Shown here: piece after piece, positions 6,294 to 64,000 of the stretch | Layout: the number at the start of each line of letters is the position of its first letter | How positions within the stretch are numbered: position 1 is the stretch's first letter | From: Achromobacter dolens | GTDB taxonomy: Bacteria > Pseudomonadota > Gammaproteobacteria > Burkholderiales > Burkholderiaceae_B | NCBI RefSeq assembly: GCF_902859745.1 | Contig: NZ_CADIJW010000001.1 | Location: forward strand, 124,001 to 188,000 | Length of the DNA: 64,000 nt | Reading direction: 5' to 3' | Notes under the pieces: model-generated | The model's database searches: none | Seen by the model: the letters and a program-made list of their open reading frames with translations, nothing else | What the model was told of the DNA's origin: nothing | Program-made: the position numbers and the translations under genes

Positions 6294-6296
6294 CTG

Positions 6297-7250: not shown

Positions 7251-7269
7251 AGGCGGTGTTCCCTGAAAG

Positions 7270-8253
7270 TCAGTTGGCCTGAATGTTGGCGCTCTGGATC
7301 ACATCGGCCCACAGCGCATATTCACGGTCGATGCGCTGTTGCAGCGCGGCGCCGTCGCCGGTGTTGATGGTGTAGCCGCCGTCGGTCATGGCGCGGCGGA
7401 AGGCGGGGTCCTTCGACACCTCGGACAGGGCGCGGGTCAGGCGCGCCTGCACCGCATCGGGCAGCTTGCGCGGGCCGACCAGCGCGTACCAGCCGACCAC
7501 CTCGTAGTCCTTCATGCCGGCCTCGATCATGGTGGGCACGTCGGGCAGCTCGGGGTTGCGGGTGCGGGAGGTGACGGCCAGCGCGCGCGCCTTGCCGCTC
7601 TTGATGAACGGAATCGCGGTGCTGGTGATGTCGAACATGAAAGTGATCTTGCCGCTGACCACGTCCATCATCGCCGGCGAGTTGCCGCGATAGGGCACGT
7701 GCAGCATCGGCACGCCGGCCTGCTTCTTCAGCAGTTCGGCCGACAGGTGGTTCGACGCCCCGATGCCGGCCGAGCCGAACGACACGGCATCGGGATGGGC
7801 GCGGGCGTAGTCGACCAGCTCGCCCACGCTCTTGGCCGGGGCCTGCGGGCCGATCAGCAGCACGTTGGCGTAGTCGACGACCAGGCCGATCAGCGAGAAG
7901 TCCTTGCGCGGATCGAACAGGGTGCTGCGCTGGACCAGCGGCGACATGGTCAGCGTGGGGCTGGCGGCAAAGCCCAGCAGGTAGCCGTCGGGCGGCGCCT
8001 TGGCGGTGGCGTCGGAGGCGATCATGCCGCTGGCGCCGGCGCGGTTCTCGACCACGACCGCCTGGCCCAGTTTGTCGCCCAGGTACTTGGCGAAGACGCG
8101 CGCGGTGGTGTCCACGGGGCCGCCGGGGGCGTAGCCCACCAGCAGGCGAATGGGGCGGTCGGGGTAGGCGCTGTCGGCGGCGGCGCTGGCGCCGGTCGCC
8201 ATGGCCGCCACGGCGGCGGCCGCGGCGAGCAGGGTCTTGATGTTCACGCTCAT
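7270..8253 (-). CDS. Bug/TctC-family substrate-binding protein
   Basis: A 327-aa exported binding protein. AAGGAG precedes the ATG (8253). The signal peptide MSVNIKTLLAAAAAVAAMAT is followed by cleavage near SAA-A. Motifs include PIRLLVGYAPGGPVDTTAR, VENRAGASGMIA, APPDGYLLGF, HVPYRGNSPAMMD and VPTMIEAGMKDYEVVGW. It sits inside an operon for acyl-CoA metabolism, between the acyl-CoA ligase (49 nt upstream) and the nitronate monooxygenase. This suggests that it captures the carboxylic acid that the ligase activates. That link is inference from gene order. Confidence 0.92.
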   Translation of the reverse strand: MSVNIKTLLAAAAAVAAMATGASAAADSAYPDRPIRLLVGYAPGGPVDTTARVFAKYLGDKLGQAVVVENRAGASGMIASDATAKAPPDGYLLGFAASPTLTMSPLVQRSTLFDPRKDFSLIGLVVDYANVLLIGPQAPAKSVGELVDYARAHPDAVSFGSAGIGASNHLSAELLKKQAGVPMLHVPYRGNSPAMMDVVSGKITFMFDITSTAIPFIKSGKARALAVTSRTRNPELPDVPTMIEAGMKDYEVVGWYALVGPRKLPDAVQARLTRALSEVSKDPAFRRAMTDGGYTINTGDGAALQQRIDREYALWADVIQSANIQAN

Positions 8254-8302
8254 GTCTCCTTGTGGAATGAGCCGGTCGAGGAGCGGAACAGCGGGGCCGC
8301 GC

Positions 8303-9823
8303 CTACGCCAGCCTTTCTTTCAGCGGCTGCTTGAGGATCTTGCCGCTGACGGTGGTGGGAATCGTGTCGATGCAGTGGATCTGCGCCGGCCGCTTGTACG
8401 GCGCCAGTTGGGCGCGCAGGTGCAGCATCAGCAGATGGGTGTCCAGGCGCGCGCCGGCCAGGGGTTCGACGAAGGCGATGACTTCCTCGTTGTGGTCCTC
8501 GGTGGGGCGGCCCACCACCGCCGACAGGCGCACGCCGGGAAAGGCGTTGATGACCGCCTCCACCTCGATCGGGTAGACGTTGAAGCCGGACCGGATGATC
8601 AGGTCCTTGGAGCGGCCGGCGATGTAGAGCGCGCCGCGGTCGTCCAGGTAGCCGATGTCGCCGGTGTTGAGCCAGCCGCCGGGCAGCAGCGCCTGCGCGG
8701 TCTGCGCCGGGTCGCGGTAGTAGCCCAGCATCACGCCGGGGCCGCGGATCAGGATGTCGCCGCGTTCGCCCGGGCGTGGCGCGTCGTCGTCGGGACGGCC
8801 GATGCGCAATTGCACGCCGTCCACCGCGTAGCCGGCGCTGCAATCGGTCGGCGGGGCGTCGATGTCGGTGATGAACATGGAGCCGGCGTATTCGGTGATG
8901 CCATAGCCGTGATGCATGGCGACGCCGAAGTAGCGTTCGGCGTCGCGCTTGAGCGTCGGGTCGAGCGCCGCGCCGCCGGTGTAGAGATAGCGCAGCGCCG
9001 GGGCGCGCAATTCGGCGCGCGGCGGCGCGGCCGCCAGCATGCGGTTGAACATGGTCGGCACGCCCTGCAGGATGCTGACGCCGGGGTGGGCCAGCGCCTT
9101 GAAGGCGTCCTCGGGATCGAAGCGGCTGCGCAGCACCAGGCTGGCGCCGCCGTGCAGCGTCGCCATCAGCACGGTGGCGATGCCGAAGATGTGCGACAGC
9201 GGCAGGGCGGCGTAGCCGATGTCGCGTGGCGTCAGGCGGCGCGACGCGGCCGAGACGCCGGCGAAATGCAGCAGGCCGCGGTGCGGCACCATGACGCCCT
9301 TGGGCGCGCCCGTGGTGCCGGACGTGTAGATCACGGTGGCGACCTCGGCGGCCTGGGCGCCGGTTTCGGGTTGGGTAGGAGAATCCGCGCGCCGTGCCCG
9401 CACGCCTGACCCCCAGGCGGCGGCATCGGCGGGTTGCGCGCCGGCCGCGTCGGCATGGGCGGCGGCGGCGCCGGAAACCCCGCTGGTGTAGAGCGTGATC
9501 TCGGGTTGGGCGTGGGCGCTGATGGCGGCGATTTCCCGCGTCGACAAGCGCGCGTTCACGCCAACCGGCCAGGCTCCGATGATGCCGCAGCCGAACAACG
9601 CGGCGATCATGGCGGCGCAGTTCTCGCCGACCATCAGCACCCGGTGGCCCGGCTTCACGCCCGCCGCCGCCAGCCAGCGCGCCGCGTCCTCGGCGCGTTG
9701 CCACAGTTGCGCATAGGTCAGGATGCCGCCGCCTTCCTCGTACAGGCAGATGGCGTCGGGCTGGCTGCCGGCCTGGCGGGCCAGCAACTGGTGGATGCGG
9801 GTGAGCGGTTCTGAGTGCGACAT
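8303..9823 (-). CDS. AMP-dependent acyl-CoA synthetase/ligase
   Basis: A 506-aa member of the ANL superfamily that forms acyl-CoA from a carboxylic acid, ATP and CoA through an acyl-adenylate. The start is the ATG at 9823 (MSHSEPLTRIHQLL). The open frame continues upstream but overlaps the thiolase gene. Motifs in order: P-loop IYTSGTTGAPKGV (about residues 160-172), YGITEYAG (A5), LNTGDIGYLD (A7), and the hinge and C-terminal GRSKDLIIRSGFNVYPIEVE (A8). The C-terminal SGKILKQ holds the catalytic Lys. It follows the thiolase by 17 nt. The chain-length preference cannot be stated. Confidence 0.93.
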   Translation of the reverse strand: MSHSEPLTRIHQLLARQAGSQPDAICLYEEGGGILTYAQLWQRAEDAARWLAAAGVKPGHRVLMVGENCAAMIAALFGCGIIGAWPVGVNARLSTREIAAISAHAQPEITLYTSGVSGAAAAHADAAGAQPADAAAWGSGVRARRADSPTQPETGAQAAEVATVIYTSGTTGAPKGVMVPHRGLLHFAGVSAASRRLTPRDIGYAALPLSHIFGIATVLMATLHGGASLVLRSRFDPEDAFKALAHPGVSILQGVPTMFNRMLAAAPPRAELRAPALRYLYTGGAALDPTLKRDAERYFGVAMHHGYGITEYAGSMFITDIDAPPTDCSAGYAVDGVQLRIGRPDDDAPRPGERGDILIRGPGVMLGYYRDPAQTAQALLPGGWLNTGDIGYLDDRGALYIAGRSKDLIIRSGFNVYPIEVEAVINAFPGVRLSAVVGRPTEDHNEEVIAFVEPLAGARLDTHLLMLHLRAQLAPYKRPAQIHCIDTIPTTVSGKILKQPLKERLA

Positions 9824-28638: not shown

Positions 28639-31074
28639 TCAGAACATCGCGGTGACGCTTAGCTGGTAGGTCCTGCCAGGCGCGGTGCCCAAGGCGATAT
28701 CACGCAGATCCTGCTCCGAGGTCGTCGTCATTTTTCTATTGCTGGCGTATTCCCAGTATCTGCGGTTGGTGAGGTTGTAGACTCCCATCGCCACTGTCAG
28801 GTGTTTCTTCACGTTGTAGTAGGCCGTCAGATCGAAAATGCTGTATCCGGGTACGCGCAGGTAGTTCTTTTCGTATTTTTCGGAATATTCCTCGAATGAG
28901 AGGCTGCCATTGTTCGGGAAATTCTGGCGGACAGGATCGACGGCTTGCTTGCCCTTGACGAAGGTGGCGGTAAGGCTCGCGCCGTAGCGGTTTTGGGGGT
29001 CATCCCAGGCCAATGATGCAATGGCCTTGACAGGCAACACGCTGTCCAGCTCCACCCAGCCATCACCCGAATACGATGATTTCGATTTGCCCTGGTTGTA
29101 TCCCACGGCAAAAGTGCTGCTCAATCCGTGGGCGGCGCCGAACAGCGCGCCATAATCGATCCGGGTGACGACCTCGGCGCCATAGATGTATGCCTTGTCC
29201 CGGTTCTCCGCGATGGTGAGGCTGGAGATCGAGGCCGGAAGCCTGGCCAGCAGGCTTTGCACGCCCGGTTTCGGCGCGCCTGTCTGGTAGTCCCTCAACG
29301 CGTATTTCCGGTTATAGATGAAATTGTCGTAGCTGTTGTAGAAGACATTGCCGCGCACCGTAAGGCCACGGGCTGCCTTGCCAACCACCCCTAATTCAAA
29401 CTGGTTGCTGGTTTCGGACTTGAGGTCGGAATTGCCCACCATGGCGGGCGAGGCGCGCCCAATCCTGGGGTGCAGCCAGATTCCCGCTATCTGGCTGCTG
29501 GTGGGGTAGGAGACTCCGCGTTTGTACTGCAGGTAGGTATTGAACCCCTGTTTGAACGCATACATGACGGTCAACGAAGGCAATAGCTTCCCGTCCGTAA
29601 ACGTCTTGCCATGTATCTCGTTGATTTCCGCCAGCGTCAATGCGCCCAGCGCGTTGTCGTCGGACGGGGCCTCAAAGCCCTGCGGGTTGATTTTGTGCCG
29701 CGAGTATTTCAGTCCCGGCATCACCGAAAACGCGCCGATGGTGATGGTGTCGCTCAGCCATACATTCGTGTCATAGGTTCTGTTGTTGCCCTGTGGCTGC
29801 AAGGTGGGATAGTCCGCGCCGACTTGGTCAAACGGCCGGGAAAAATCCGTTATCGAGAAATTCACGCCGTAATTCAATGCCTGCGCGCCATAGTCCTTGG
29901 TGATTTCGCTTTGCAGGCCATAAGTCTTGGTGTTCATGTTGGAGAAAGTCGAAACATTCTCCAAGGGGTTCTCCGTCTCCATTCCGGTCGACCACGACCT
30001 GGATGAAGTGACGATGTCCTGCGCTGAAACGGTGTCATCGCCAACGCGCGTTTGCTGATAGAAGACCTTGCTTTCCATCGTATCCATCAGCGCGTTGTTT
30101 CGCGGCGTGAAAACGTGCGCCAGGCTGATCGAATCGCGTTGCGTGGAATTCCGTTGCCTGCTTGCGCCGACAACGCTTTCCTGGGGAGCGCGGCTGTTCA
30201 GTTTTTTGTACATGGGCGCGCTCTCCCTGCTGGATTTACGGTAGAAATCCAGCGTGCCTATGATCCGGCCGCTGCCGCCGGTGTCGATCACGCCGTTGAT
30301 CAGCGCGGCATCGGAATGCCAGCGCATCGGATAAGTATCCAGATAGCCGCTGTTGTTCCGCGTCTGCCTGCCATCACGTCGGCTGTAGGCGAACAATGCC
30401 CTGGCGCTGTCATTGCCGAACGCGGTGGTCACGCCGTTGTGCCAGCCATGATCGGAGGAGTCGAACTCGCCGGTGTATTCCAGGTAGCTGCGTTTACCGT
30501 CCGTGAGATAGGCGTCCGGTGATTTGCTGACGAATGACACAGAGCCGCCGACCACGTTCTTGACCGTGTTCTGGCGCGATCCGGAAGCGATGTTCACCTG
30601 GCCGTACAGATAGGGATCGATGTAATCGCGGCCAATGCCAAAAGTGTCTTCACCGCTGGAGACCGCGTAACTGCGCCCGGTGGCGTCCGGCAAGGGGATG
30701 CCATTGACATCCAGCGCCACCCGGTTGCCGTCCAGGCCGCGAATGTTGTAGCTGCTGTAACCGCCACGGTCAAAACCCGATTTGCCGTTGCGGGACCCGC
30801 TGTTCACGCCCGATGCGCTGATCAGCGGTTGGTAGCGCATGATGGTGCCAAAGTTGTTGCCACCCGTCCTTTTCAGCTCATCGGCGGAAATGGATTGCGT
30901 GGTGACATCTTCCGGCCTGATGGTTGCGCTAACAGTGATCGGCGAAAAAATCTTCAGCCCATCACGAGCGTCGTGCCTGGCCTCGCCGGGCGTGGCCTCG
31001 TTCGGGACGGTCTGGCCATAAGAGCTTGTGGACAACAGGAGGGCTGCCGCCAGCGATATTTTCGTGCGTTTCAT
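28639..31074 (-). CDS. TonB-dependent outer-membrane receptor, haem/haemoglobin-receptor-like
   Basis: An 811-aa outer-membrane receptor. The start at 31074 (MKRTKISLAAALLLSTSSYG) has AGGGA about 10 nt upstream and gives a clean signal peptide. A TonB-box-like ITVSATI lies near residue 47. The plug domain has SADELKRTGGNN, YNIRGLDGNRVALDVNGIPL and GSRQNTVKNVVGGSVSFVSKSP. A beta-barrel of ~650 residues ends in YQLSVTAMF with the terminal Phe. The plug pattern resembles haem/haemoglobin receptors, but I cannot confirm the ligand. Base composition is less GC-rich than the neighbours, hinting at transfer. No Fur box was clear upstream. Confidence 0.85.
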   Translation of the reverse strand: MKRTKISLAAALLLSTSSYGQTVPNEATPGEARHDARDGLKIFSPITVSATIRPEDVTTQSISADELKRTGGNNFGTIMRYQPLISASGVNSGSRNGKSGFDRGGYSSYNIRGLDGNRVALDVNGIPLPDATGRSYAVSSGEDTFGIGRDYIDPYLYGQVNIASGSRQNTVKNVVGGSVSFVSKSPDAYLTDGKRSYLEYTGEFDSSDHGWHNGVTTAFGNDSARALFAYSRRDGRQTRNNSGYLDTYPMRWHSDAALINGVIDTGGSGRIIGTLDFYRKSSRESAPMYKKLNSRAPQESVVGASRQRNSTQRDSISLAHVFTPRNNALMDTMESKVFYQQTRVGDDTVSAQDIVTSSRSWSTGMETENPLENVSTFSNMNTKTYGLQSEITKDYGAQALNYGVNFSITDFSRPFDQVGADYPTLQPQGNNRTYDTNVWLSDTITIGAFSVMPGLKYSRHKINPQGFEAPSDDNALGALTLAEINEIHGKTFTDGKLLPSLTVMYAFKQGFNTYLQYKRGVSYPTSSQIAGIWLHPRIGRASPAMVGNSDLKSETSNQFELGVVGKAARGLTVRGNVFYNSYDNFIYNRKYALRDYQTGAPKPGVQSLLARLPASISSLTIAENRDKAYIYGAEVVTRIDYGALFGAAHGLSSTFAVGYNQGKSKSSYSGDGWVELDSVLPVKAIASLAWDDPQNRYGASLTATFVKGKQAVDPVRQNFPNNGSLSFEEYSEKYEKNYLRVPGYSIFDLTAYYNVKKHLTVAMGVYNLTNRRYWEYASNRKMTTTSEQDLRDIALGTAPGRTYQLSVTAMF

Positions 31075-53965: not shown

Positions 53966-55924
53966 ATGGCCGAACCGTTGATTTCGCTGTCCGGGGTCCG
54001 GCGCGAATTCCCCGCGGGCGAGCAGACCATCGCCGTTCTCAAGGACATCAACCTGACCATCGAGGCCGGGGAAATGGTGGCCATCGTCGGCGCGTCCGGT
54101 TCGGGCAAGTCGACCCTGATGAACATCCTGGGCTGCCTGGACCGCGCCACCAGCGGCGACTACCGCGTCAGCGGCCGCAGTACCGGAGAACTGGATCCGG
54201 ACGAGCTGGCCGAGCTGCGCCGCGAGCATTTCGGCTTCATCTTCCAGCGCTACCACCTGCTGTCCGACCTGACGGCGCAGGGCAACGTCGAAGTGCCGGC
54301 CGTCTACGCCGGCAAGCGTCGCGAGGCCCGGCTGAAACGCGCCGCCGACCTGCTCGAGCGCCTGGGGCTCGGCGAACGCACCGGCCACCGGCCCGGCCAG
54401 TTGTCCGGCGGCCAGCAGCAGCGTGTGAGCATCGCCCGCGCGCTGATGAATGGCGGCGACATCATCCTGGCCGACGAGCCGACCGGCGCGCTGGACACGC
54501 ACACCGGCCAGGAAGTGCTGCGCATCCTGGAGGAACTGAACGCCGCCGGCCACACCATCATCCTGGTCACCCACGACATGAACGTGGCGCGGCACGCGCA
54601 GCGCATCATCGAGATCAGCGACGGCGAGATCGTCTCGGACCAGCGCAACCCCGACGCGCCGCGCATCGAGGTCAAGCGCGAGGAGGCGGCGCCGCTGCCG
54701 CCGCGGCCGGCCTGGCAGGCCTACCTGGACCGCTGCGGCGAAGCGCTGCGCATGGCGCTGCTGGCCATGAACGCGCACCGCCTGCGCACCTCCCTGACCA
54801 TGCTGGGCATCATCATCGGCATCGCCGCGGTGGTGTCAGTGGTGGCGCTGGGCGAGGGTTCGCGCCAGAAGATCCTCGAAGACATCAGCGAGATCGGCAC
54901 CAATACCGTCGAAGTGTTTCCCGGCAAGGACTTCGGCGACGAAAAGGCCCTGACCATCCGCACCCTGGTGCCGGCCGATGCCGAGGCCCTGTCACGCGAG
55001 TCCTACGTGGACAGCGTCACGCCCGAGGTTTCCACCAGCAACACGCTGCGCTATCGCAACGTGGCGGTGAATGGCTCGATCCAGGGCGTGGGCGAGCAGT
55101 ATTTCCGGGTGCGCGCCGTCAAGCTGGCGCAGGGCAAGTTCTTCGACGCCACCAGCGTGGCGCGGCGCGCCCAGGAAGTGGTGATCGACGAGAGCACCCG
55201 CAAGACCCTGTTCGGTTCGCACACCGACCCGATCGGCCAGATCGTGTTCCTGGGGTCGATGCCGGCGCGGGTGATCGGCGTCACCAAGAAGAACGACACG
55301 GTGTTCGGCAACAACGAGACCTTGAACGTGTGGATTCCCTACACCACGGCGCTGTCGCGCGTGCTGGGGCAGCAGCATCTCAAAAGCATCACCGTGCGCG
55401 TCAACGACGCCGCGCCGCCGGCGGCGGCCGAACAGGCCATCACCAAGGTGCTGCTGCGGCGCCACGTGGTGAAGGATTTCTTCGTGTTCAACACCGACGC
55501 GATCCGCAAGACCATCGAGCGCACCACGGCCACCATGACGCTGCTGGTGTCGCTGATCGCGCTGATCTCGCTGATGGTCGGCGGCATCGGCGTCATGAAC
55601 ATCATGCTGGTGTCCGTGACCGAGCGTACCCGCGAAATCGGCGTGCGCATGGCGGTGGGCGCGCGTCGCAGCGACATCATGCAGCAGTTCCTGATCGAAG
55701 CCGTGCTGGTCTGCCTGATCGGCGGCGCCGTGGGCATCGCGCTGTCGCTGGGCCTGGGCGTGCTGGTCTCGAAAGCGACCGGCGGGTCCTTCCGCATGAT
55801 CTATTCCACCGCGTCGATGGTGGCGGCATTCACCTGCTCGACGCTGATCGGTGTGCTGTTTGGTTATCTCCCGGCGCGCAACGCGGCGCGCCTGGATCCC
55901 GTCGAGGCCCTGGCCCGGGAATGA
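53966..55924 (+). CDS. macB: MacB-type ABC exporter, ATPase-permease fusion
   Basis: A 652-aa protein. The N-terminal ATPase has Walker [17 protein letters not shown] (about residues 41-56), [19 protein letters not shown] (Q-loop), signature [15 protein letters not shown], Walker [13 protein letters not shown] and H-loop LVTHDMN. TM1 lies at about residues 270-295 ([20 protein letters not shown]). A large periplasmic domain and three more membrane segments ([20 protein letters not shown]) end at [15 protein letters not shown]. It acts by mechanotransmission with MacA and an outer-membrane channel. The ATPase part is a homologue of the truncated and intact ATPases at 60.2 and 62.4 kb. Confidence 0.96.
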
Positions 55925-57357
55925 GAACGATGAAAGCTGTTTCCCTGATCCGCAAACCCGCCGCCCTGGCTCTGGTGCTGGCCCTGGCCGGCTGCGGCGG
56001 CCTGCTCAAGAGCGAATACGAAACGCCGCGGACGCAGTCGCCGGCCGCCTGGCTCCACGGCACGGGCGCCGACGCGCCGGCCAACGCGCTGGCCGCTGGA
56101 GGCGCCTGGTGGCGCAATTTCAACGACCCGGTGCTGGACGGCCTGGTCGATGGCGCGTTGGCGCGCAACAACGACCTGGCCGCCGCCGCCATCCGCGTGC
56201 GCCGCGCGCAATTGCAGGCCGGACTGGCACAGGACCAACTTATCCCGCAACTGTCCGGCACCGGCAACGTGACGCGCGCGCGCAACCTGCGCGGCGAACG
56301 CGAAATCACGCGCACCAACAGCGCCGAACTGTCGATCGGCTACGAGGTCGACCTGTGGGGCAAGCTGTCGCGCCAGCTCGACGCCGCCGAGTGGGAAGCG
56401 CTCGCCAGCGAGCAGGACCGCCAAAGCTCCGCGCTGTCGCTGGTGGGCACCACCGCCACGCTGTATTGGCAGACCGCCTTCATCAACCAGCGCATCGCCA
56501 GCAGCCTGGAGAGCATCGCCTACGCCCGCAAGACGCAGGAACTGGTGCGCGCGCAATATGCCGCCGGCGGCGCCTCGGCGCTGGAAGTGGCCGAGGCCGA
56601 GCAGACCGTGGCCAGCCAGCAGGCGGCGCACGCGCTGCTGGTGCAGCAACGGGTGGAATACGTGAACGCGCTGGCGATCCTGTTCGACGGCCCGCCCGAC
56701 CGCACCATGGCCGACCCGCAACGCCTGCCGCAGTACCCGCTGCCGCAGGCGCGCGAAGGCGTGCCGGCCGAACTGCTGGGCCGCCGTCCCGACCTGCGCG
56801 CCGCCGAACTGCGCCTGCGGGAGTCGCTGTCCAATATCGACGCGGCCCGCGCCAGTTTCTATCCGACCCTGAACCTGACCGGCGCGCTGGGCAGCTCCAG
56901 CCCGACGCTGTCGAATGTGCTGCAGAACCCCGTGGGCACGCTGACGGGGGCGCTGACGCTGCCGTTCCTGCAGTTCAACCGCCTGAACCTGAACCTGAAG
57001 GTCTCGCGCGCGGATTTCGACGAACGGGTGGTGAGCTTCCGCCAGGCGCTGTACCAAGCCATGGCGGATGTGGAAAACGCGTTGTCGAACCGGACGCAGT
57101 TGCGCCTGCAGGCTGAGCAGTTGGACGCGTCGCTGAAGGCGGCGCGCGAGGCGGAGCGCCTGTACGAGGTGCGCTACCGAGCGGGATCGGTGTCGTTGCG
57201 GTTCTGGTTGGATGCGCAAGAGAAGCGGCGCGCAGCCGAGATCGCGCGGGACGAGAATGCCCTGAATCGGTTGGTGAATCAGGTGAAGGTCTATCAGGCG
57301 CTGGGAGGAGACGATGCCGTCGTCATGGCCGGTGCTGGCGCGGTGGACGGCCGATGA
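55921..57357 (+). CDS. NodT-family outer-membrane efflux lipoprotein (TolC-type channel)
   Basis: A 478-aa outer-membrane factor. The ATG at 55921 overlaps the macB stop by 4 nt. The lipobox LALAGCGG puts the lipidated Cys at about residue 24. Two outer-membrane efflux repeats are visible: [20 protein letters not shown] with [20 protein letters not shown], and [20 protein letters not shown] with [13 protein letters not shown]. It completes a tripartite MacAB-channel pump in one operon. The last ~100 bp are slightly less GC-biased. Confidence 0.94.
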
Positions 57358-57699
57358 GCGGATCGCGCCCATAGCGCGTTGAAAAAAGCCCCGGCGTCGG
57401 CGCGCGATATCGCCGGCGCCAGCGCTGAAATCCGATCGCGTCCGATCCTCCTGGCCGCGTCAACTTCGATATTGGCTCGGGCAGTTCGCAAGCTGACCCG
57501 CAGCGCTTCGGCCTGTTCCCGAATCGTCGCCTATGCCGTCAGATTCGGACGGTTTCACCTGATGCAATAGAAGACGGAAAGCAGCGTCAGCCGACGCTGA
57601 ATCATGAAGGCCGTCGCTACAATCGATTGACCGCGCAATACCCCGCCAGACTGATCACGTTCACCGCAACGTACGATCACCGTCACCGAAATACTCAGA
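57358..57699. other. Intergenic region between the efflux operon and the LysR gene
   Basis: 342 bp with no supported gene. An A-rich tract followed by a GC-rich dyad (57380-57425) may end the efflux operon, but the stem is imperfect. GC content begins to fall within this stretch, so it is a candidate for the left boundary of the accessory region. Confidence 0.45.
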
Positions 57700-58608
57700 A
57701 TGAACTTGCGACTGCTGAAGTACTTCGCTGTGTTGGCCGACGAGTTGAACTATCGCCGCGCCGCCGAACGGCTGCATATTGAAATCTCGCCGTTGTCTCG
57801 GGCGATTCAATCGCTGGAAACCACCTTGGGGGTGTCTCTTTTTGTGCGGTCCAACCGGGGCACCCTGCTCACGCCGGAGGGGGAAGCGCTACGGGAGCAC
57901 ATTCCGGCCATATTCAGCGCAATCGGTCAGGCGCGCGACAGCGTCCTAGGCGTGGCCGTTGGCAATCGCGGCGCGCTACATATTGCCCTGTCAGAAGGAA
58001 TGAACCCGACGCGATTGGCCGCGTTGATGGCCGGTTGCCGCGCGGACGAGCCGCGCGTGGTCATCCATTTTTCGGAGGTGCCGTTCGCCCAGCAACTCGC
58101 AGGCCTGGACCAAGGCCTTTACGACCTGGGTTTCGCTCCATCCGACCACGTGGGCCGCGGCATCGTGGCTGAACGAGCCTGGCAAGACCCGATCCATGTG
58201 ATTCTCCCCACCGGCCACCCGCTGCTGGCGATGGAAGTGATTCCATTGAGCGCGGTTCTCAGGCATCCCCTGGTGCTTGGCGATCCGAAGTATTGCGAGG
58301 GATGCCGCCGGCAAATCGACCGCTTGATCAGTAAGGGTTCGGCCCAACCTCTCGTGGCGGCGCAGGTGCAATCGACCTATCTCATGCTTTCGATGGTGGC
58401 CGCTGGCGTCGGCCTCGCACTGGTGGGCGCTTCCCAGGCCCTTTCAAGCTGGGAACTCGGCATCCTCAGCCGTCCGCTGGCCGAGCCGGCGGCGTTGACG
58501 ACCTGGCTCCTGCGCTCAACCCGCGTCGCACGCCAGAACGTGACGCGCTTCGTTGAGCGGGTGATTGCCATGCGCGAAGACACCTCTCCACCTTCCCGCG
58601 CGCGGTAA
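57700..58608 (+). CDS. LysR-family regulator of the type often found with integrative elements
   Basis: A 302-aa LysR protein. The HTH lies in LNYRRAAERLHIEISPLSRA (residues 17-36). The effector domain has LHIALSEGMNPTRLAALMAG, FSEVPFAQQLAGLDQGLYDL, LGFAPSDHVGRGIVAE and LGDPKYCEGCRRQIDRLI. The combination LxxGLYDxGFAxSDxVGxGIVAE with CEGxxRQ is, from memory, that of LysR regulators repeatedly seen beside integrative and conjugative elements in beta- and gamma-proteobacteria. No such element is visible on this side of the window. A terminator-like dyad follows at 58664. Confidence 0.9.
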   Translation: MNLRLLKYFAVLADELNYRRAAERLHIEISPLSRAIQSLETTLGVSLFVRSNRGTLLTPEGEALREHIPAIFSAIGQARDSVLGVAVGNRGALHIALSEGMNPTRLAALMAGCRADEPRVVIHFSEVPFAQQLAGLDQGLYDLGFAPSDHVGRGIVAERAWQDPIHVILPTGHPLLAMEVIPLSAVLRHPLVLGDPKYCEGCRRQIDRLISKGSAQPLVAAQVQSTYLMLSMVAAGVGLALVGASQALSSWELGILSRPLAEPAALTTWLLRSTRVARQNVTRFVERVIAMREDTSPPSRAR

Positions 58609-58663
58609 ACGGCCACTATCGGTGCGTGAGCCTGGCTCGATCACATCCACACGTTACCTTTTG

Positions 58664-58703
58664 GGCCTATCACGTTGCCCATAAGGCAACGTGATAGGCC
58701 TTT
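58664..58703 (+). terminator. 16-bp perfect inverted repeat, terminator-like, between LysR and the duplicated module
   Basis: GGCCTATCACGTTGCC (58664-58679) and GGCAACGTGATAGGCC (58685-58700) are exact reverse complements with a CATAA loop, followed by TTTC. It can terminate the LysR transcript. The corresponding place in copy B (about 60585-60630) keeps CGTTACCTTTT and ATAAGGCAACGT but has lost the left arm, so the dyad is part of the duplicated unit. Confidence 0.75.
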
Positions 58704-58800
58704 CGCCGTTCTAGATTGAAAGATCCAATTCCCTGCCTTTGTAGCGCTTTTGGAAAAGAAGTCAGGGGCGTCAATTGCTGGAATCAATCAGGAGCTGCTT

Positions 58801-59652
58801 GTGCAAGTATCCAATTCAACGCTGTCAGGTCCGAGCGGCCCGCTCGGTTTCAACTATTCGTCGACGCGGTTCACCACCGACGCGAATGGGGAGGCCCGCT
58901 TCACCGAAGTCATGGGTTCTGCGAAGCAAAAATATATCGAAAGCCCCCCCGCATCGAAGGCCGTGACCCTGTCTGATAAGGCGGTGGCGCTGTCAAGCCA
59001 GGAGACCGAAGATGAGGATGCAGATCTCAGCTTGTTGGCGTGCTGGACACCGGCTGAGCTGGCGCGGTTCACCAGGAACTATACGGAAAGCGAGCGGCTC
59101 GAGGAACTGGATATTATGGTTTTTAACAGTCAATATTCACCGGGGTGCGATTGCAGTGAGCTTACTGAAGATGGTGGTCAGATTTACTATGCGACCACGA
59201 AGATTCCGGTTACCGCAGAAAGTGAAATTGTCGACAGGCGGCAGTCAGATACGTTCGTTGCGCAGTTGAAATCGATGTATAAGGCCGAAAGGAACAAAGG
59301 CAGCTCAGCGCTGGATATCTACAAGAAGATCGGAAAATTGATTCTGGCCCAACCGGATGATTTTGCTTATAGGTTCGGATTCAGTGTCACGTTTCGCGAG
59401 AGGGTGGAGTCCATGCAATGGGGGGGACGTGCTAACCCGGTCGAACGGCAGCGCGGTGATTTTTCTACCCTCAGTCACGCCGCTTCAGACGAATCGAATG
59501 TCGCGATGTTGAAAAAAATGAAAGATGGGTTTTCGCACAACACGCTGCAACAGAAAGTACATGATATGGAGCGAGACAGGCAGCATCAGTTGATGGACCT
59601 GTTGTATGGGAAAGTGAACCATAAGTCGAAACCCACAGGTCGCCAGGCGTAA
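58801..59652 (+). CDS. Unknown protein, copy A of a duplicated pair (283 aa)
   Basis: The start is the GTG at 58801, with AGGAGC seven nt upstream; the same signal is present in copy B. The first ~60 residues (MQVSNSTLSGPSGPLGFNYS... to DKAVALS) are almost identical to copy B at 60732, with about four base changes in 196 nt. The rest is roughly half identical by eye. No signal peptide or membrane segment is seen. The N-terminus is rich in Ser, Thr and Gly. Two nearby cysteines (GCDCSE) are conserved as CDCSD in copy B. The C-terminus keeps MERDR...LMDLLYGK. The family is unknown to me. The gene is AT-richer than the core genome, which suggests transfer. Confidence 0.75.
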   Translation: MQVSNSTLSGPSGPLGFNYSSTRFTTDANGEARFTEVMGSAKQKYIESPPASKAVTLSDKAVALSSQETEDEDADLSLLACWTPAELARFTRNYTESERLEELDIMVFNSQYSPGCDCSELTEDGGQIYYATTKIPVTAESEIVDRRQSDTFVAQLKSMYKAERNKGSSALDIYKKIGKLILAQPDDFAYRFGFSVTFRERVESMQWGGRANPVERQRGDFSTLSHAASDESNVAMLKKMKDGFSHNTLQQKVHDMERDRQHQLMDLLYGKVNHKSKPTGRQA

Positions 59653-59663
59653 ATCAGGTTTCT

Positions 59664-59691
59664 CCGAAAAATGCGCATGTCGCATTTTCGG
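59664..59691 (+). terminator. Hairpin after copy A unknown gene
   Basis: CCGAAAAATGCG/CGCATTTTCGG forms an 11-12-bp stem 12 nt after the stop of the 283-aa gene. There is no clear T-tract after it, so termination is probable but not certain. Copy B has a different but equally placed hairpin with a T-tract at 61612-61645. Confidence 0.55.
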
Positions 59692-60003
59692 AAAGGCGTC
59701 GGCATATTGGATTCGCCGGGCCTAATAAAGATGGTCAGACAGAACCCCGCTAGGCGTAGCGCTTCGTGGGGATCGGGCCGACCATAGCTTTTTATGGCTA
59801 GGGGCAAAACCATATTTTTCTGACCGATACGGTAACGCGTGTTCCCAAAATAGCAATAAACGACGCCGTTGCTGCGTTCAAATTGATGTGCAGGTTGTCA
59901 ACCTGTCCACCCCGTATGTTGTCAAGCTGAAAGCAAGTCATCTAAGGGGGGGCATCAATCGCTGATTGATGCGTAGTTTCATACCTAGCCCTGGAGAGAT
60001 GTC
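59692..60003. promoter_or_regulatory. Upstream region of the decayed secreted-protein gene, with a palindrome
   Basis: This ~310-bp stretch is recognisably homologous to 61646-61905 in copy B (for example CGCGTGTTCC, TTCAAATTGA, GTTGTCAACCTG and ATCGCTGATTGATGCG). It contains the perfect palindrome CAGGTTG-T-CAACCTG at 59891-59905. It holds no gene of its own that I can support. Confidence 0.6.
59891..59905. promoter_or_regulatory. Conserved palindrome CAGGTTG-T-CAACCTG (copy A)
   Basis: A perfect 7-bp dyad with a one-base centre, about 100 bp upstream of the secreted-protein gene start. Copy B retains it as CAGGTT-ATC-AACCTG at 61792-61806, at the same distance. Conservation in position and symmetry in two otherwise diverged upstream regions suggests an operator. 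Confidence 0.55.
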
Positions 60004-60151
60004 ATAAAAACCCCATTGCTGCGTGCAGATATCGCAGTATTTTAATGGCAAACTCGCCGATAAGCCTTTCCATGTGAAATATACTGGAACAGGGCTTGGG
60101 CCATATCCTCGCTATATCCTTGCCACGATGGTGGTTTATTACAACGACTGA
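60004..60151 (+). pseudogene. Decayed copy of the small secreted protein gene
   Basis: The start has become ATA (KTPLLRA aligns with KNGLLNA of copy B). An internal deletion of about 250 bp then joins to the 3' end in another frame. That end reads QYFNGKLADKPFHVKYTGTG, then LGPYPRYILATMVVYYND and TGA at 60149-60151, against QYFVGSPADNTFYVKYTGTG and PRYIISSMVVYYND in the intact gene at 61906-62316. It cannot make the protein. It shows that the duplicated unit included this gene. Confidence 0.85.
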
Positions 60152-60163
60152 GAAAACAGCAAT

Positions 60164-60204
60164 GGATGGCGATTTGTTTTCGATTTGAAAATAAATCGCC
60201 ATCC
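60164..60204 (+). repeat. Hairpin after the decayed secreted gene
   Basis: GGATGGCGATTTGTTTTC (60164-60181) and GAAAATAAATCGCCATCC (60187-60204) form an 18-bp stem with one mismatch and a 5-nt loop. It lies between the secreted-gene remnant and the ATPase fragment. Copy B has an unrelated stem in the same place at 62329-62369, so a structure is kept although its sequence changed. Confidence 0.7.
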
Positions 60205-60238
60205 GAAATATATAAGCTGATTCTGGACATCGTGACCG

Positions 60239-60478
60239 ATGCAGAGCAAAGAGGCGTCGTCGGGCCATCCGCTCGTTCAAATCACACATGTCAGCCATGC
60301 CTATCGCATGAGCAGCCAATCCGTATCCATGCTACGGGACGCGACGCTCGAAATCCATCCTGGCGAAACCTGCACGCTGCTTGGAGCGTCCGGTTCCGGC
60401 AAGAGCACCTTGCTCAGTATCCTGGGCTTGCTCGACCGGCTTTCGGCGGACCGGTTCCTACCTGGGAAACCCCGCTAG
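60239..60478 (+). pseudogene. Truncated MacB-like ABC ATPase fragment (copy A)
   Basis: A 79-codon frame whose first ~70 codons match the intact ATPase at 62417-63121. [40 protein letters not shown] (Walker A) and [11 protein letters not shown] are present. Similarity stops abruptly after the D-loop-proximal LLDR block, and the frame ends GKPR. The Q-loop, signature, Walker B and H-loop are absent, so it cannot hydrolyse ATP. It marks the 3' breakpoint of copy A. Confidence 0.85.
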
Positions 60479-60731
60479 GGGGCAACTCCCGGCAACAGAA
60501 AAACCTCATCAGGTTGACTAGCCATTGCCGGGCGAATTGCTCCCATGTGTGCAGTGAGTACCGCCTTCGGGTGGGTTGCCCGTACGTTACCTTTTCGGTC
60601 TGGCGCGTTTCTTATAAGGCAACGTCAAGGGCCACTCGCCGTTCTAGATTGAAAGATCCAATTCCTTGCCCTTGCGCCCATTTGGAGAACAGCCAATGGC
60701 ATCAATGGCTTGAATCAATCAGGAGCTACTT
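60479..60731. promoter_or_regulatory. Junction and promoter region of copy B
   Basis: About 250 bp. From about 60585 onward it is homologous to the region before copy A. Both hold CGCCGTTCTAGATTGAAAGA followed by TCCAATTCC (copy A from 58704, copy B from about 60638), which probably includes the promoter of the unknown gene. Both also hold AATCAATCAGGAGCT immediately before the GTG. Confidence 0.6.
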
Positions 60732-61571
60732 GTGCAAGTATCCAATTCAACGCTGTCAGGTCCGAGCGGCCCGCTCGGATTCAACTATTCGTCGACGCGG
60801 TTCACTACGGACGCGAATGGGGAAGCCCGCTTCACCGAAGTCATGGGTTCTGCGAAGCAAAAATATATCGAAAGCCCCCCCGCATCGAAGGCCGTGACCC
60901 TGTCTGATAAGGCGGTGGCGCTGTCAAATAAGGAGTCGGAAGATAAGGATGCAGATCTCAGCTTGTTGACGGCCTGGACACCTGAAGAGTTGGCTCGCTT
61001 TGCTAACAACTATACCGAGGAGGAACGGTATCAACGGCTCGAGACTTGGGCTTTCTTCGGCGATGGGGCCGCATGTGACTGCAGCGACGCAATTTATGGG
61101 GGGCCGGATTACTACGCGACTACGAGAATTCCGATCACTCCTGAAAGTAAAATGATCGATAAACGACAAGCCGATGCGTGCAATGCCGAATTGAAAGCCA
61201 TGTATGCCGCCGAGAAGGCAAAGGGCAGTTCAGCAATGGATATCTATAAAAAAATGGGGCATGTGATTTTGTCTCAGCCGAACGATTTCGCCTACAGATT
61301 CGGATTGAGTGTCAAGTATCGTGAAGCGGTAGAGTCAATGGATCCGTGGGGAGGTCACGGGAATCCGTTCGTTAATGGTATTACGTCCATCACGTATGTC
61401 CCACCAGATGAATCAGACGCTGGGACGCCTACGCAGACAAAGGATGAAATTTCCCGAAGCGTGTTGCAGCACAAAGTGCATGCTATGGAACGGGACAGGC
61501 AATACCTGCTGATGGATTTGCTTTATGGAAAATTGGGTCATACGTCGAAGGCATCCAATCGCTCGGTATAG
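60732..61571 (+). CDS. Unknown protein, copy B of a duplicated pair (279 aa)
   Basis: The start is a GTG with AGGAGC seven nt upstream. Residues 1-62 are virtually the same as in copy A; from about residue 65 the two diverge but still align. Shared marks are DADLSLL(T/A)xWTPxELARF, NYTExER, CDCS, YYATT(R/K)IP, DKRQ/DRRQ, DIYKKxGxxILxQPxDFAYRFG, V(H)xMERDRQ and LMDLLYGK. It is mainly helical in appearance, with no export signal or membrane segment. The function is unknown. Its codon use is AT-richer than the core genome. A terminator follows, so it is probably monocistronic from its own promoter. Confidence 0.8.
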   Translation: MQVSNSTLSGPSGPLGFNYSSTRFTTDANGEARFTEVMGSAKQKYIESPPASKAVTLSDKAVALSNKESEDKDADLSLLTAWTPEELARFANNYTEEERYQRLETWAFFGDGAACDCSDAIYGGPDYYATTRIPITPESKMIDKRQADACNAELKAMYAAEKAKGSSAMDIYKKMGHVILSQPNDFAYRFGLSVKYREAVESMDPWGGHGNPFVNGITSITYVPPDESDAGTPTQTKDEISRSVLQHKVHAMERDRQYLLMDLLYGKLGHTSKASNRSV

Positions 61572-61611
61572 ATTATTAATTTCAGAGTGGCACGCTCTTA
61601 TGTGCCTTTCC

Positions 61612-61645
61612 GAAAAAAACCCGATGCGTTCCATTGGGTTTTTTT
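61612..61645 (+). terminator. Intrinsic terminator after copy B unknown gene
   Basis: AACCCGATG-CGTTC-CATTGGGTT is a 9-bp stem with one G-T pair, flanked by A7 and T7. It lies about 45 nt after the stop of the 279-aa gene. Confidence 0.85.
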
Positions 61646-61905
61646 ATGATCGTGGCTCAATCTGATTTTTCTCTTTGATGTAGCGACGGTCCGCTAAGCA
61701 ATGATGGGATTTTTCATGGTCTGACCAATTCGGTCGCGCGTGTTCCAAAAATAACAACATGCAATCCCATTGTGGCGCTCAAATTGAGTTGCAGGTTATC
61801 AACCTGTCGTCCTGTATGTTGATCGGGCCTCGCCAGCAAAAGCCGGGGAAGTTCAGCATCAGCCGATGATCGATACGAAGTTCACCTTTTTTTGGAAGAG
61901 ATTTT
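61646..61905. promoter_or_regulatory. Upstream region of the small secreted protein gene
   Basis: About 260 bp without a gene, homologous to 59692-60003. It holds the palindrome CAGGTT-ATC-AACCTG (61792-61806). TTTTTTTGGAAGAGA lies just before the ATG at 61906 and provides a GGAAGAG ribosome-binding site. Confidence 0.6.
61792..61806. promoter_or_regulatory. Conserved palindrome CAGGTT-ATC-AACCTG (copy B)
   Basis: A 6-bp dyad with a 3-bp centre, 100 bp upstream of the secreted-protein ATG. It is the counterpart of the 59891-59905 palindrome in copy A. It is a likely regulator binding site for the secreted-protein/ABC transcript. Confidence 0.55.
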
Positions 61906-62316
61906 ATGAAGAATGGATTGCTGAATGCGTTGATAGCTGCTTCGCTGCTGTTCTCCGGCAGCGCATTCGCCGGGGATTATGTTTGGTCCGCTGATAATGG
62001 TAGCGACTCCGTGTCAAGGAAGGGGGCGACAACAATTGTTATGTATCGGCCGGCTAATTTTCTCGTCTCACCCTCGGGTAAAAAAATAAAGGGTGTGCAA
62101 GTGCAGCTTCGAGATAGCGCCCAGGCGGATGTATCGATGCAGGTTTGCTACGGTAATACAGTTAATTGCCTTCCGATATCCTACGATGGGAGAATTTACC
62201 AATATTTTGTTGGCAGTCCTGCCGATAATACGTTCTATGTCAAATATACCGGTACGGGTGCCGGGCCGTACCCCAGGTACATAATTTCCTCGATGGTGGT
62301 GTATTACAACGACTAA
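61906..62316 (+). CDS. Small secreted protein with two cysteines (136 aa), possibly FlhE-like fold
   Basis: A Sec signal peptide, MKNGLLNALIAASLLFSGSA-FA, ends near AFA-G, leaving a mature protein of about 113 aa rich in beta-prone residues. Two cysteines (MQVCYGNTVNCLP) are six residues apart and probably form a disulfide in the periplasm. The C-terminal part, with VQLRDSAQADVSMQVCYG, then PADNTFYVKYTGTG and ISSMVVYYND, resembles the layout of the flagellar-associated protein FlhE (two Cys, short G-rich turn, S-x2-V-x-V-N-Y ending). That link is only a pattern judgement. It sits directly before an ABC ATPase gene, which suggests a joint function. Confidence 0.8.
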   Translation: MKNGLLNALIAASLLFSGSAFAGDYVWSADNGSDSVSRKGATTIVMYRPANFLVSPSGKKIKGVQVQLRDSAQADVSMQVCYGNTVNCLPISYDGRIYQYFVGSPADNTFYVKYTGTGAGPYPRYIISSMVVYYND

Positions 62317-62328
62317 GCAAGTTCCGAT

Positions 62329-62369
62329 CGATAGTGGGTCATTGCCGGTTTGGCTATAACCCGCTATCG
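62329..62369 (+). repeat. Hairpin between secreted protein gene and ABC ATPase gene
   Basis: CGATAGTGGGT (62329-62339) and ACCCGCTATCG (62359-62369) pair with one mismatch around a 19-nt loop. There is no T-tract, so it may act as a processing or attenuation element rather than a full terminator. It has the same position as the 60164-60204 stem in copy A. Confidence 0.6.
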
Positions 62370-62416
62370 AATACATTTGAATCGATTTGGACCTTTTGAC
62401 TGATGCGGCTTGCAAG

Positions 62417-63121
62417 ATGCTGCACCATCCGCTCATTCACGTCACACATGTCAGCCATGCCTATCGCATGAGCAGCCAATCCGTATCCGTGCTACGGGAC
62501 GTGACGCTCGGGATCCACCCCGGCGAAACCTGCGCGCTGCTTGGGGCGTCCGGTTCCGGCAAGAGCACCTTGCTCAATATCCTGGGCTTGCTCGACCGGC
62601 CGTCGGCCGGCCAGTTCCTGTTTCGCGGACGCGACATGCTGGATATGGACGAGAACGCTCGCGCCTGGGTTCGCAATCGAGAGATCGGGTTCGTTTTTCA
62701 GTCCTTCAACCTGTTGCCCCGTATGAACGCCCTCGATAACGTTGCCTTGCCACTGTTCTATCGTGGTATCCCGCGAGCCCAGGCGCGGGCCACGGCCACG
62801 GATTGGCTTCGTCAAGTTGGATTGGCCGATCGCGGCGGGCATCTCCCTGCCGATCTCTCCGGCGGGCAGCGCCAGCGGGTCGCCATTGCCCGCGCCTTGG
62901 TCGGCAATCCCTCCGTCATTCTTGCGGACGAACCGACCGGTAATCTGGATCAAGCTTCAGCCGAGAGCATCATGGCCTTGCTCATGGGGCTGAATCGCGA
63001 GCGGGCGGTCACGATCGTGATGGTGACGCATGATGCCAACCTGGCTGACCGCTTCTCGCGCCAGCTCCATGTGCGCGACGGTGTATTGCATGAACCCTGC
63101 CACTGCGATGAAAGACGTTGA
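62417..63121 (+). CDS. MacB/LolD-type ABC transporter ATPase (intact copy B)
   Basis: A 234-aa ATPase. The ATG at 62417 is preferred; a TTG at 62387 would add 10 residues, and neither has a strong ribosome site. Walker A is [17 protein letters not shown]-loop [20 protein letters not shown], signature [16 protein letters not shown], Walker [14 protein letters not shown]-loop VMVTHDAN. All catalytic residues are present. Unlike macB at 54 kb, the permease is a separate gene 6-18 nt downstream. Such ATPase-permease pairs export peptides or lipoproteins or act as mechanotransmitters. An adaptor gene is not seen before it; it may follow the window edge. Confidence 0.92.
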
Positions 63122-63139
63122 TTTCCGGTGTTCCGGTGC

Positions 63140-64000
63140 ATGCGCGGTCCATCGCTGACGCAAACTGCGCTGCAAGCGGCCGACAGCCTGCGCCAAATGG
63201 GTCGCAGGGCCTTGTTGGCTTTGCTCGGCATCATGGTCGGCAGCACCGCCATCATCGCGCTCCTGAACATCGGGCATAGCGCCGCCGAACAGGTGATGCG
63301 CATGTTCAAGGACATGGGTACGGACATCCTGGTGGTGACTTTCCCTGTGACGGGCGCCAAGCCGCGCGCGCTGCCCCGCGCGTTGGATGCCGGCGCGTTG
63401 GCGCAAGCCGTGCCGGGCATCCGCCATGCGGCGCCCCTGTCGGTCTACAACGTGCCGCTGCGTTTCCCGGGACGTACGATGGTTCCCAGGATCGTAGGCA
63501 CGACGCCGGATCTTGCCGCCGCGATGAATCTGCGCATGGATCGCGGCCGTTTCCTGTCGCCGTTCGATCGTCATGCCACGTTTGCCGTCGTCGGTGCGGA
63601 AATCGCGCGTGAACTGGGCAGTCCGGCGCATCCGCTCGCCCTGGGGGCCTCGCTGCAAATTGGCGGCTACTTCTATCAGGTCATCGGCGTCACGCGCAGC
63701 ATGAAGGGGAATCCGCTGATTCCGGTCGATGCGGACCGATCGGTGATCGTTCCCGTTGAAGGGCTGCACCGATTGTTTCCCAAGCCTGAACTCGGCGCCA
63801 TCCTGGCCAGGGCGACGCCTATGGCCGACCTTGTGGAAACGGCCAGCGCGCTGCGCGAGTATGTCGGCACGCAGGTGCCCGGCAGGGAGGTCCAGGTGGA
63901 TATTCCCCGGCAATTGATCGATGGTCTCGAGCGCCAGTCCCGAACCTTCTCATATCTGCTCGCGGGACTGGGCGCGATCTCATTGCTGGTGGGCGGCGTG
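63140..64000 (+). CDS. MacB-like (FtsX-domain) ABC permease, cut by the window edge
   Basis: The frame is open from a GTG at 63128 or the ATG at 63140 to the end of the window, about 287 codons. TM1 covers about residues 22-45 (RALLALLGIMVGSTAIIALL). A MacB-type periplasmic core follows (DILVVTFPVTGAK, VPRIVGTTPDLAAAMNLRMD, GRFLSPFDRHATFAVVGAEI, IGVTRSMKGNPLIPVDADRS). The sequence LAGLGAISLLVGGV at the edge begins TM2, so two more membrane segments should lie beyond. It pairs with the ATPase just upstream. GC content rises again here, unlike the two unknown genes. Confidence 0.9.
   Translation, partial: MRGPSLTQTALQAADSLRQMGRRALLALLGIMVGSTAIIALLNIGHSAAEQVMRMFKDMGTDILVVTFPVTGAKPRALPRALDAGALAQAVPGIRHAAPLSVYNVPLRFPGRTMVPRIVGTTPDLAAAMNLRMDRGRFLSPFDRHATFAVVGAEIARELGSPAHPLALGASLQIGGYFYQVIGVTRSMKGNPLIPVDADRSVIVPVEGLHRLFPKPELGAILARATPMADLVETASALREYVGTQVPGREVQVDIPRQLIDGLERQSRTFSYLLAGLGAISLLVGGV

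What the first reader, a model, noticed from the sequence alone, without database searches (positions are those of the whole stretch)
58620..64000. Tandemly duplicated accessory module: unknown ~280-aa protein, small secreted protein, MacB-like ABC exporter
Seen directly: two successive units have the same order, namely promoter block, GTG-started unknown gene, hairpin/terminator, palindrome, small secreted gene, second hairpin, ABC ATPase. Copy A is decayed in the last two genes; copy B is intact and continues into a permease. The region is AT-richer than its surroundings. Known from families: MacB-type exporters move peptides, toxins or lipoproteins. Inference: the secreted protein and the ~280-aa protein are substrate, accessory or immunity parts of a transferred export or antagonism system. 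I recognise no described system with this set.
Basis: partly seen in the sequence, partly recalled or inferred. Interest (0 to 1): 0.85.

Follow-up and report, generated by a model that had tools for sequence, protein, structure and literature searches.

The report
Mobile export module with swappable cassettes
A small genomic island in an Achromobacter bacterium carries genes for a pump across the outer membrane together with tandem, recombining pairs of an unknown protein and a secreted protein related to the flagellar protein FlhE; similar sets turn up on plasmids of unrelated bacteria, so this looks like an undescribed, diversifying protein-export module whose job is still unproven.

Summary
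Two units (unknown gene, small secreted gene, ABC gene) lie at 58651-63121; copy A has lost most of its secreted gene and all but about 65 codons of its ABC gene. Beyond the window the operon continues: permease, TolC-like channel, HlyD-like adaptor. The whole is a 9.8-kb island (57322-67096), absent from 5 of 5 relatives examined (near-clean empty site in 4); the exporter orthologue is in 3 of 43 genus genomes, with 2, 3 and 4 units.

The secreted protein is a divergent FlhE-fold protein. The unknown protein (UNK) has no known relative, no signal peptide, a conserved, probably disordered start and a variable body. For the same slot in two genomes, body and secreted gene differ by synonymous distance above 1.3, but start, regulator and permease by 0.02-0.08: cassettes are exchanged by recombination, under purifying selection.

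Of 27 exporter loci examined (alpha-, beta-, gammaproteobacteria, many on plasmids), 13 carry both a small secreted gene and an UNK-type gene, 5 one of them, 9 neither.

Best reading: a MacB-type tripartite system that exports the FlhE-like protein from the periplasm, with UNK as its polymorphic partner or payload. Function is inferred; the paper searches found no description.

The parts
57322..64000 (.). Genomic island (window part; runs on to 67096, C1:181322-191096)
   Evidence: Absent from G020, G018, G011, G007 and G041; gap left at the site about 400, 80 and 75 bp in G020, G018, G011, about 510 bp in G007, and 5.1 kb of other genes in G041
57700..58608 (+). LysR-type regulator, first gene of the island
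   Evidence: PF03466 3.6e-28, PF00126 2.4e-19; about 98% in the other 2 island genomes, nothing above 31% in the 5 island-free loci
58651..58741 (.). Upstream block of unit A with a 17-pair inverted repeat (possible lysR terminator)
58801..59652 (+). UNK copy A, 283 aa, intact, GTG start
   Evidence: 96% identical to G040 slot 2
59891..59905 (.). Palindrome CAGGTTGTCAACCTG upstream of secreted gene A
60026..60148 (+). Remnant of secreted gene A (residues 96-136 only)
60266..60460 (+). Truncated ABC gene A (residues 14-78)
60584..60674 (.). Upstream block of unit B, inverted repeat decayed
60732..61571 (+). UNK copy B, 279 aa, GTG start
61792..61806 (.). Palindrome CAGGTTATCAACCTG upstream of secreted gene B
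61906..62316 (+). SEC: secreted FlhE-fold protein, 136 aa, signal peptide by eye, two invariant Cys (81, 88)
   Evidence: Foldseek top hit 4qxl FlhE E 2.5e-5
62387..63121 (+). ABC ATPase, LolD/MacB type (TTG start listed; the real start may lie near 62417, inference)
   Evidence: LolD model 6.7e-73, MacB 6e-65, both under cut-off
63128..64000 (+). MacB-like permease, 400 aa, ends at 64330 beyond the window; then TolC-like 64323-65804 and HlyD-like 65797-67071
   Evidence: MacB_PCD 8.1e-29, FtsX 4.3e-22, OEP 8.3e-38, HlyD_3 5.7e-16

Best explanation
A mobile, recombining protein-export module. Shown: the island carries a complete MacB-type tripartite pump gene set (ATPase, permease, adaptor, outer-membrane channel) behind tandem cassettes, each of an UNK gene and a Sec-signal FlhE-fold gene; cassettes have been exchanged through homologous flanks (the conserved 5' end of UNK and the 5' end of the ABC gene), and truncated ABC fragments lie between units. 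Inferred: SEC crosses the inner membrane by Sec, forms its disulfide and is moved out through the pump, as MacAB-TolC does for the Sec-delivered toxin STII, or serves the pump as periplasmic chaperone; UNK, with its conserved N-terminus and variable body, is the polymorphic partner or payload that SEC and the pump serve, its inner-membrane route being unknown; the array is a store of alternative cassettes that diversifies the exported product.
For: Gene set and order. Recurrence: another genus with SEC-UNK-ABC-permease-channel (L057); Citrobacter, Pantoea, Rahnella and Deefgea plasmids with secreted gene, UNK3 and pump; Rhizobium, Azospirillum and G1006 with analogous genes; a Pantoea plasmid with annotated FlhE on both sides of the pump. 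SEC as FlhE fold. Cassette exchange: the last slot in G000 and G010 has dS 0.02 in UNK codons 1-65, 1.39 in the rest, 1.35 in SEC, against 0.06 in permease and 0.08 in LysR; copy A joins the upstream part of G040 slot 1 (93-97%) to the body of G040 slot 2 (91-99%, mostly 98-99%). Function kept: dN/dS about 0.1-0.2 in bodies. MacB-type pumps act from the periplasm and export STII (PMC5985334, passages).
Against: No secretion was tested. UNK has no signal peptide, and MacB does not move substrates across the inner membrane. 9 of 27 pump loci examined have neither partner (5 of these are one genus), and 5 have only one. The UNK families are not detectably homologous (hhalign probability 0.2). The shared N-terminal motif is present in only 9 of 23 proteins. 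UNK and SEC also occur without the pump. The UNK model is poor (pLDDT 47). The fronts of UNK are not equally alike: G010 slots 1 and 2 differ more (dS 0.19-0.56).
Confidence: 0.45

Rival explanations
1. Toxin-immunity arrays: UNK is a polymorphic antibacterial effector and SEC its periplasmic immunity protein; upstream units are orphan pairs as in Rhs or CDI loci.
For: Paired, co-varying cassettes, conserved UNK start with variable body, truncated downstream gene fragments, plasmid and transposon settings; solitary SEC genes.
Against: UNK A is intact beside a broken SEC; in G040 slot 2 UNK is intact although SEC lost its start, and in slot 3 there is no SEC match while UNK is frameshifted. No toxin or immunity model matches. 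Two Pantoea megaplasmids hold UNK3 with no adjacent SEC-like gene annotated; one has a 146-aa lipoprotein-like gene 2 kb upstream beyond an IS.
Confidence: 0.2
2. SEC is the exported product and coats the surface; arrays serve antigenic or phage-escape variation, and UNK is a cytoplasmic helper or regulator.
For: FlhE belongs to a superfamily with the spirochete flagellar sheath protein FlaA (PMC11247099 section 6); SEC alleles differ by dS above 1 in 12 of 15 pairs; Sec signal and Cys pair suit a MacB substrate.
Against: The UNK body is as divergent as SEC, odd for a helper; silent storage copies would not need an upstream region of their own, yet every unit has one.
Confidence: 0.15
3. An ordinary small-molecule efflux pump beside unrelated hitchhiking genes.
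For: Pump relatives at 48-52% identity in 5 genomes of one genus of the same class have no UNK or SEC; 9 of 27 loci lack both.
Against: 13 of 27 loci carry both kinds of gene, with non-homologous UNK families in the same place; the 15.6-kb Deefgea plasmid carries little cargo besides this set.
Confidence: 0.12

Closest known systems
MacAB-TolC and related MacB-type tripartite pumps
   Same: MacB_PCD/FtsX permease, LolD/MacB-like ATPase, HlyD-like adaptor, TolC-like channel; known to export the Sec-delivered peptide toxin STII (PMC5985334, passages)
   Different: ATPase and permease are separate genes; ATPase scores under the MacB and LolD cut-offs; coupled to FlhE-like and UNK cassettes in tandem
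FlhE (PF06366), proposed periplasmic chaperone of the flagellar rod
   Same: Fold (4qxl top hit), size, signal peptide, Cys pair shared with FlhE-family relatives, weak profile similarity
   Different: Not in a flagellar operon; tandem and divergent; the window protein itself has no Pfam FlhE match
Rhs / CDI orphan cassette arrays (recalled, no call)
   Same: Conserved N-terminal part, variable rest, tandem displaced modules, truncated fragments
   Different: Small proteins, no large toxin carrier, no toxin or immunity domain found, pump genes downstream instead
Darobactin-type exporters (ABC_ATP_DarD; their biology recalled)
   Same: ATPase similar (3.3e-61, cut-off not reached)
   Different: No modification enzyme or short precursor gene recognised in the island; UNK is about 280 aa

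Membership tests
MacB-type tripartite exporter | MacB periplasmic core plus FtsX C-terminal domain in the permease | tested here: met
   PF12704 8.1e-29, PF02687 4.3e-22
MacB-type tripartite exporter | Cognate ATPase, HlyD-like adaptor and TolC-like channel in one operon | tested here: met
MacB-type tripartite exporter | Transport of a periplasmic substrate through the channel | not testable with these tools
   needs a secretion assay
FlhE family (PF06366) | Match to the Pfam profile above its cut-off | tested here: not met
   1 of 7 members of A3 matches at all, at E 0.0025; the window protein does not. Of 8 relatives or SEC-position proteins, 4 pass (L055, L060, L061, L074)
FlhE family (PF06366) | FlhE fold | tested here: met
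   Foldseek 4qxl E 2.5e-5, TM 0.62/0.71, on a model of mean pLDDT 67
FlhE family (PF06366) | Gene follows flhB and flhA in a flagellar operon | tested here: not met
   window neighbourhood
Polymorphic toxin / CDI-Rhs system | Conserved N-terminal region with exchanged C-terminal region | tested here: met
Polymorphic toxin / CDI-Rhs system | Recognisable toxin domain | tested here: not met
   no NCBIfam, PADLOC or PHROG model for the window UNKs, and in Pfam only a sub-threshold CTD11 match of copy A at E 0.26; no PDB match. An unknown toxin is not excluded
Polymorphic toxin / CDI-Rhs system | Specific immunity protein | not testable with these tools
   SEC co-varies but UNK A persists without its own SEC
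Polymorphic toxin / CDI-Rhs system | Carrier: RHS, haemagglutinin repeat, LXG, PAAR or the like | tested here: not met
   none among the island proteins scanned

The most novel reading that the evidence does not exclude
A new class of polymorphic secretion system in proteobacteria: MacB-type tripartite pumps that export a family of N-terminally tagged, cassette-swapped proteins (several unrelated bodies) with FlhE-fold periplasmic partners, spread on plasmids and islands; this would be a non-flagellar function of the FlhE family.
Probability: 0.3. Interest if true: 0.85.

Novelty: new variant of a known kind. Interest (0 to 1): 0.62.

Why it matters
Halte et al. [quoted passage not shown] A recurrent FlhE-like/UNK/MacB-type set gives that question a concrete, testable candidate. 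If the pump exports these proteins, it adds protein secretion with cassette-based diversification to a pump family best known for drug efflux.

Tried and rejected
Phage origin: no UNK match in phage records; none among viral contigs by peptide-pattern scans. Window UNK on plasmids: none; two distant UNK1 queries also none. Anti-phage defence: PADLOC hits only to ATPase or permease parts, none for UNK or SEC. Structured RNA between the genes: no Rfam family. UNK fold: model too poor, Foldseek best E 1.9. Homology of the UNK families: not found. SEC2 as FlhE-like: not found; SEC3 as FlhE-like: found. Positive selection on UNK: not seen, dN/dS about 0.1-0.2. E. coli carriers: none by distant blastn with one Citrobacter query. 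Simple recent tandem duplication: rejected, bodies are near saturation at synonymous sites while 5' ends are nearly identical in G000 and G040.

The regular expression for the N-terminal motif was chosen after seeing sequences, start codons of several UNK-type proteins were chosen by me, and 8 of the 23 proteins are UNK1 relatives; so 9 of 23 against 1.07 expected (0 of 19 in the last 90 residues) is a lead only. Two plasmid hits (H4, H9) were not fetched and H15 only in part; H4 and H9 are left out of the count of 27, and H15, the near-twin of H11, is not counted again. On checking I mended one claim of my draft: the G041 site is not empty but holds 5.1 kb of other genes.
Full report
Setting. 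The window is C1:124001-188000 of a 6.29-Mb genome. UNK is in 3 of 43 genus genomes: the window genome (2 copies), G010 (3) and G040 (4, one frameshifted; five matches because of the break). The permease orthologue at 98% is in the same 3 of 43; three others have relatives at 39-51%.

The island. Past position 64000 the operon goes on: permease to 64330, TolC-like channel (64323-65804), HlyD-like adaptor (65797-67071), then a conserved ThiF-like gene. That gene is in 42 of 43 genus genomes. I fetched its locus from 5 island-free genomes. In 4 of them the upstream MacAB-type operon and the ThiF-like gene are near neighbours, with about 400 (G020), 80 (G018), 75 (G011) and 510 bp (G007) between the aligned flanks; in G041 the same place holds 5.1 kb of other genes, among them CoA-transferase-like ones (names by eye). 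So this is a variable site, and the island is about 57322-67096, including the LysR gene, which the finding left out. I saw no flanking repeat in the two end sequences that I printed and no integrase gene among those I identified; I did not search further.

The units. In each of the three genomes the array is UNK, SEC, ABC fragment (58-78 codons), repeated, with the last ABC gene intact and followed by the pump. Exceptions: the window's copy A keeps only the tail of SEC, G040 slot 2 has no ABC fragment match and slot 3 no SEC match. Truncated downstream genes also follow UNK-type genes elsewhere: an ABC fragment after a UNK2 gene in G199 (L058), and in a Rahnella plasmid what looks by eye like a truncated permease start that runs into a UNK2 gene (L085). 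Along the unit alignment (windows of 100 columns), paralogues in G000 and G040 are 91-97% identical from 36 columns before UNK to about codon 55 (G040 slot 3 excepted, 50-69%), then 37-75% through the UNK body. G010 slot 3 and copy B of the window share 95-99% of the front, 59-76% of the UNK body, 65-70% of SEC, and 77, 90 and 96% of the successive windows of the ABC start. Copy A matches G040 slot 1 upstream (93-97%) and G040 slot 2 in the body (91-99%, mostly 98-99%): a crossover inside the shared front, with loss of a unit. Synonymous distances say the same: codons 1-65 dS 0.02, body 1.39, SEC 1.35, permease 0.06, LysR 0.08 for the last slot of G000 and G010. Against a uniform picture: while fronts of six of the eight intact UNK genes differ from each other by dS 0.02-0.15, those of G010 slots 1 and 2 differ by 0.19-0.56; values above about 2 are saturated. 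dN/dS in bodies is about 0.1-0.2, so these are maintained proteins, neither decaying nor visibly under positive selection.

The secreted protein. Its profile (A3) finds relatives in 36 of 268 family genomes, the island genomes included. Of eight relatives or SEC-position proteins tested, Pfam FlhE passes its cut-off in four: L060, L061, L074 and L055, the last from G005, which the A3 search did not list. A three-dimensional model (mean pLDDT 67) has FlhE 4qxl as its best match in the PDB. A profile of ten SEC and FlhE-like proteins hits 4qxl at 6.9e-12; five of its rows were themselves Pfam FlhE matches, so this supports the alignment more than the window protein. The secreted proteins of Citrobacter, Pantoea CFBP8756 and Rahnella plasmids match that profile (93.5%, E 2.3e-7), although Pfam does not see them. 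A second set (SEC2: G016, pALTS33, Shewanella, Rhizobium; the Rhizobium member only 22% identical) is not detectably FlhE-like.

The unknown protein. No NCBIfam family and in Pfam only a sub-threshold match at E 0.26, no PADLOC or PHROG model for the window proteins, no PDB sequence. Relatives share the central region: 6 of 268 family genomes, 3 of 399 order genomes including its own, and G005 by a local search at E 4e-4, 9 genomes in all; G384 was found with a profile that already held the G005 protein. The pump is next to UNK1 in 5 of 9 (G000, G010, G040, G059, G005); G199 has an ABC fragment nearby; G057 (SEC, UNK, UNK) and G398 have no pump within the stretch fetched; G384 ends at a contig edge. 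Two further families take the same place: UNK2 (A9) and UNK3 (A8), not detectably homologous to UNK1. UNK2, UNK2 and UNK3 segments are fused in one 791-aa protein on plasmid pALTS33, with SEC2 and another UNK2 upstream, behind a Tn3 transposase. In 22 of 23 UNK-type proteins Ser, Thr, Asn and Gln make up 30-53% of the first 60 residues and more than in the rest; the Azospirillum protein is the exception; none shows a hydrophobic run of eight in the first 35 residues.

Census of pump loci. I examined 27: seven genus or family genomes, twelve plasmid loci, eight genomes of a phylum search. Both a small secreted gene and an UNK-type gene: 13 (G000, G010, G040, G005, G016, G059; Citrobacter, Pantoea CFBP8756, Rahnella aquatilis, Deefgea, Azospirillum B510, Rhizobium; G1006). 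UNK-type only: Rahnella aceris, Methylosinus. Secreted only: Enterobacter, Pantoea CFSAN047153 (annotated FlhE on both sides of the pump), G930. Neither: G042, Azospirillum argentinense, Legionella, five genomes of one genus of the same class, G824. In Azospirillum, G1006, Rhizobium and Methylosinus 'UNK-type' rests on position, size and (except Azospirillum) composition, not homology; in G1006, Rhizobium and Methylosinus it is on the strand opposite to the pump. Azospirillum B510 has three tandem UNK-type genes with conserved ends and a variable middle, a second case of a diversified array at such a pump.

Mechanism. MacB-type pumps do not carry substrates across the inner membrane; STII reaches the periplasm by Sec and is then exported by MacAB-TolC (PMC5985334, passages). 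SEC, with a signal peptide and an invariant Cys pair, fits that route as substrate or periplasmic partner. UNK fits the pattern of an exported polymorphic protein (common start, varied body) but its route is not explained. I hold the module and the cassette exchange as shown, export of SEC as likely, export of UNK as open.

Literature. Searches of the held library for FlhE with MacB, FlhE with ABC transporter/TolC/tandem, MacB-like with small secreted protein, FtsX-like permease with polymorphic toxin, darobactin/MacB/HlyD/exporter/bacteriocin, Achromobacter/MacB/tandem, and FlhE domain with ABC transporter listed no paper whose title or abstract start describes this set; subscription papers are mostly not held. 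Read: PMC11247099 (abstract, section 6, passages; found) and PMC5985334 (passages). PMC8277102 and the other papers were seen in listings only.

Noticed in passing
window 53966-57357: A separate MacAB-type fused pump gene and an outer-membrane channel gene lie directly upstream; they are conserved in the island-free relatives fetched, so the island inserted beside another MacB-type operon.
   Followed up: partly
L140 6468-11478 (G041): At the same insertion site another genome holds 5.1 kb of unrelated genes (IclR-like regulator, CoA-transferase-like, enoyl-CoA-hydratase-like; by eye), so the site is a variable spot.
   Followed up: no
L142 (pALTS33) 4489-8527: A 791-aa protein fuses UNK2, UNK2 and UNK3 segments, with SEC2 and another UNK2 upstream, behind a Tn3 transposase on an IncP plasmid.
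   Followed up: partly
L096 1456-4369 (Azospirillum sp. B510 plasmid): Three tandem 252-aa proteins with conserved ends and variable middles beside a MacB-type pump.
   Followed up: partly
L059-L075: Solitary FlhE-like genes in many genera of the family, in scattered contexts without the pump.
   Followed up: partly
L087 4663-12087 (Pantoea plasmid): Two FlhE genes flank the pump operon and a gene annotated flgE lies next door.
   Followed up: no
window 29001-31000: Another stretch of lower G+C (57-60%) in the window.
   Followed up: no
L146 4296-7038 (Shewanella plasmid): SEC2 followed by two tandem UNK2 genes with nearly the same start, and a further small protein with a similar start, without a pump within the stretch fetched.
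   Followed up: no
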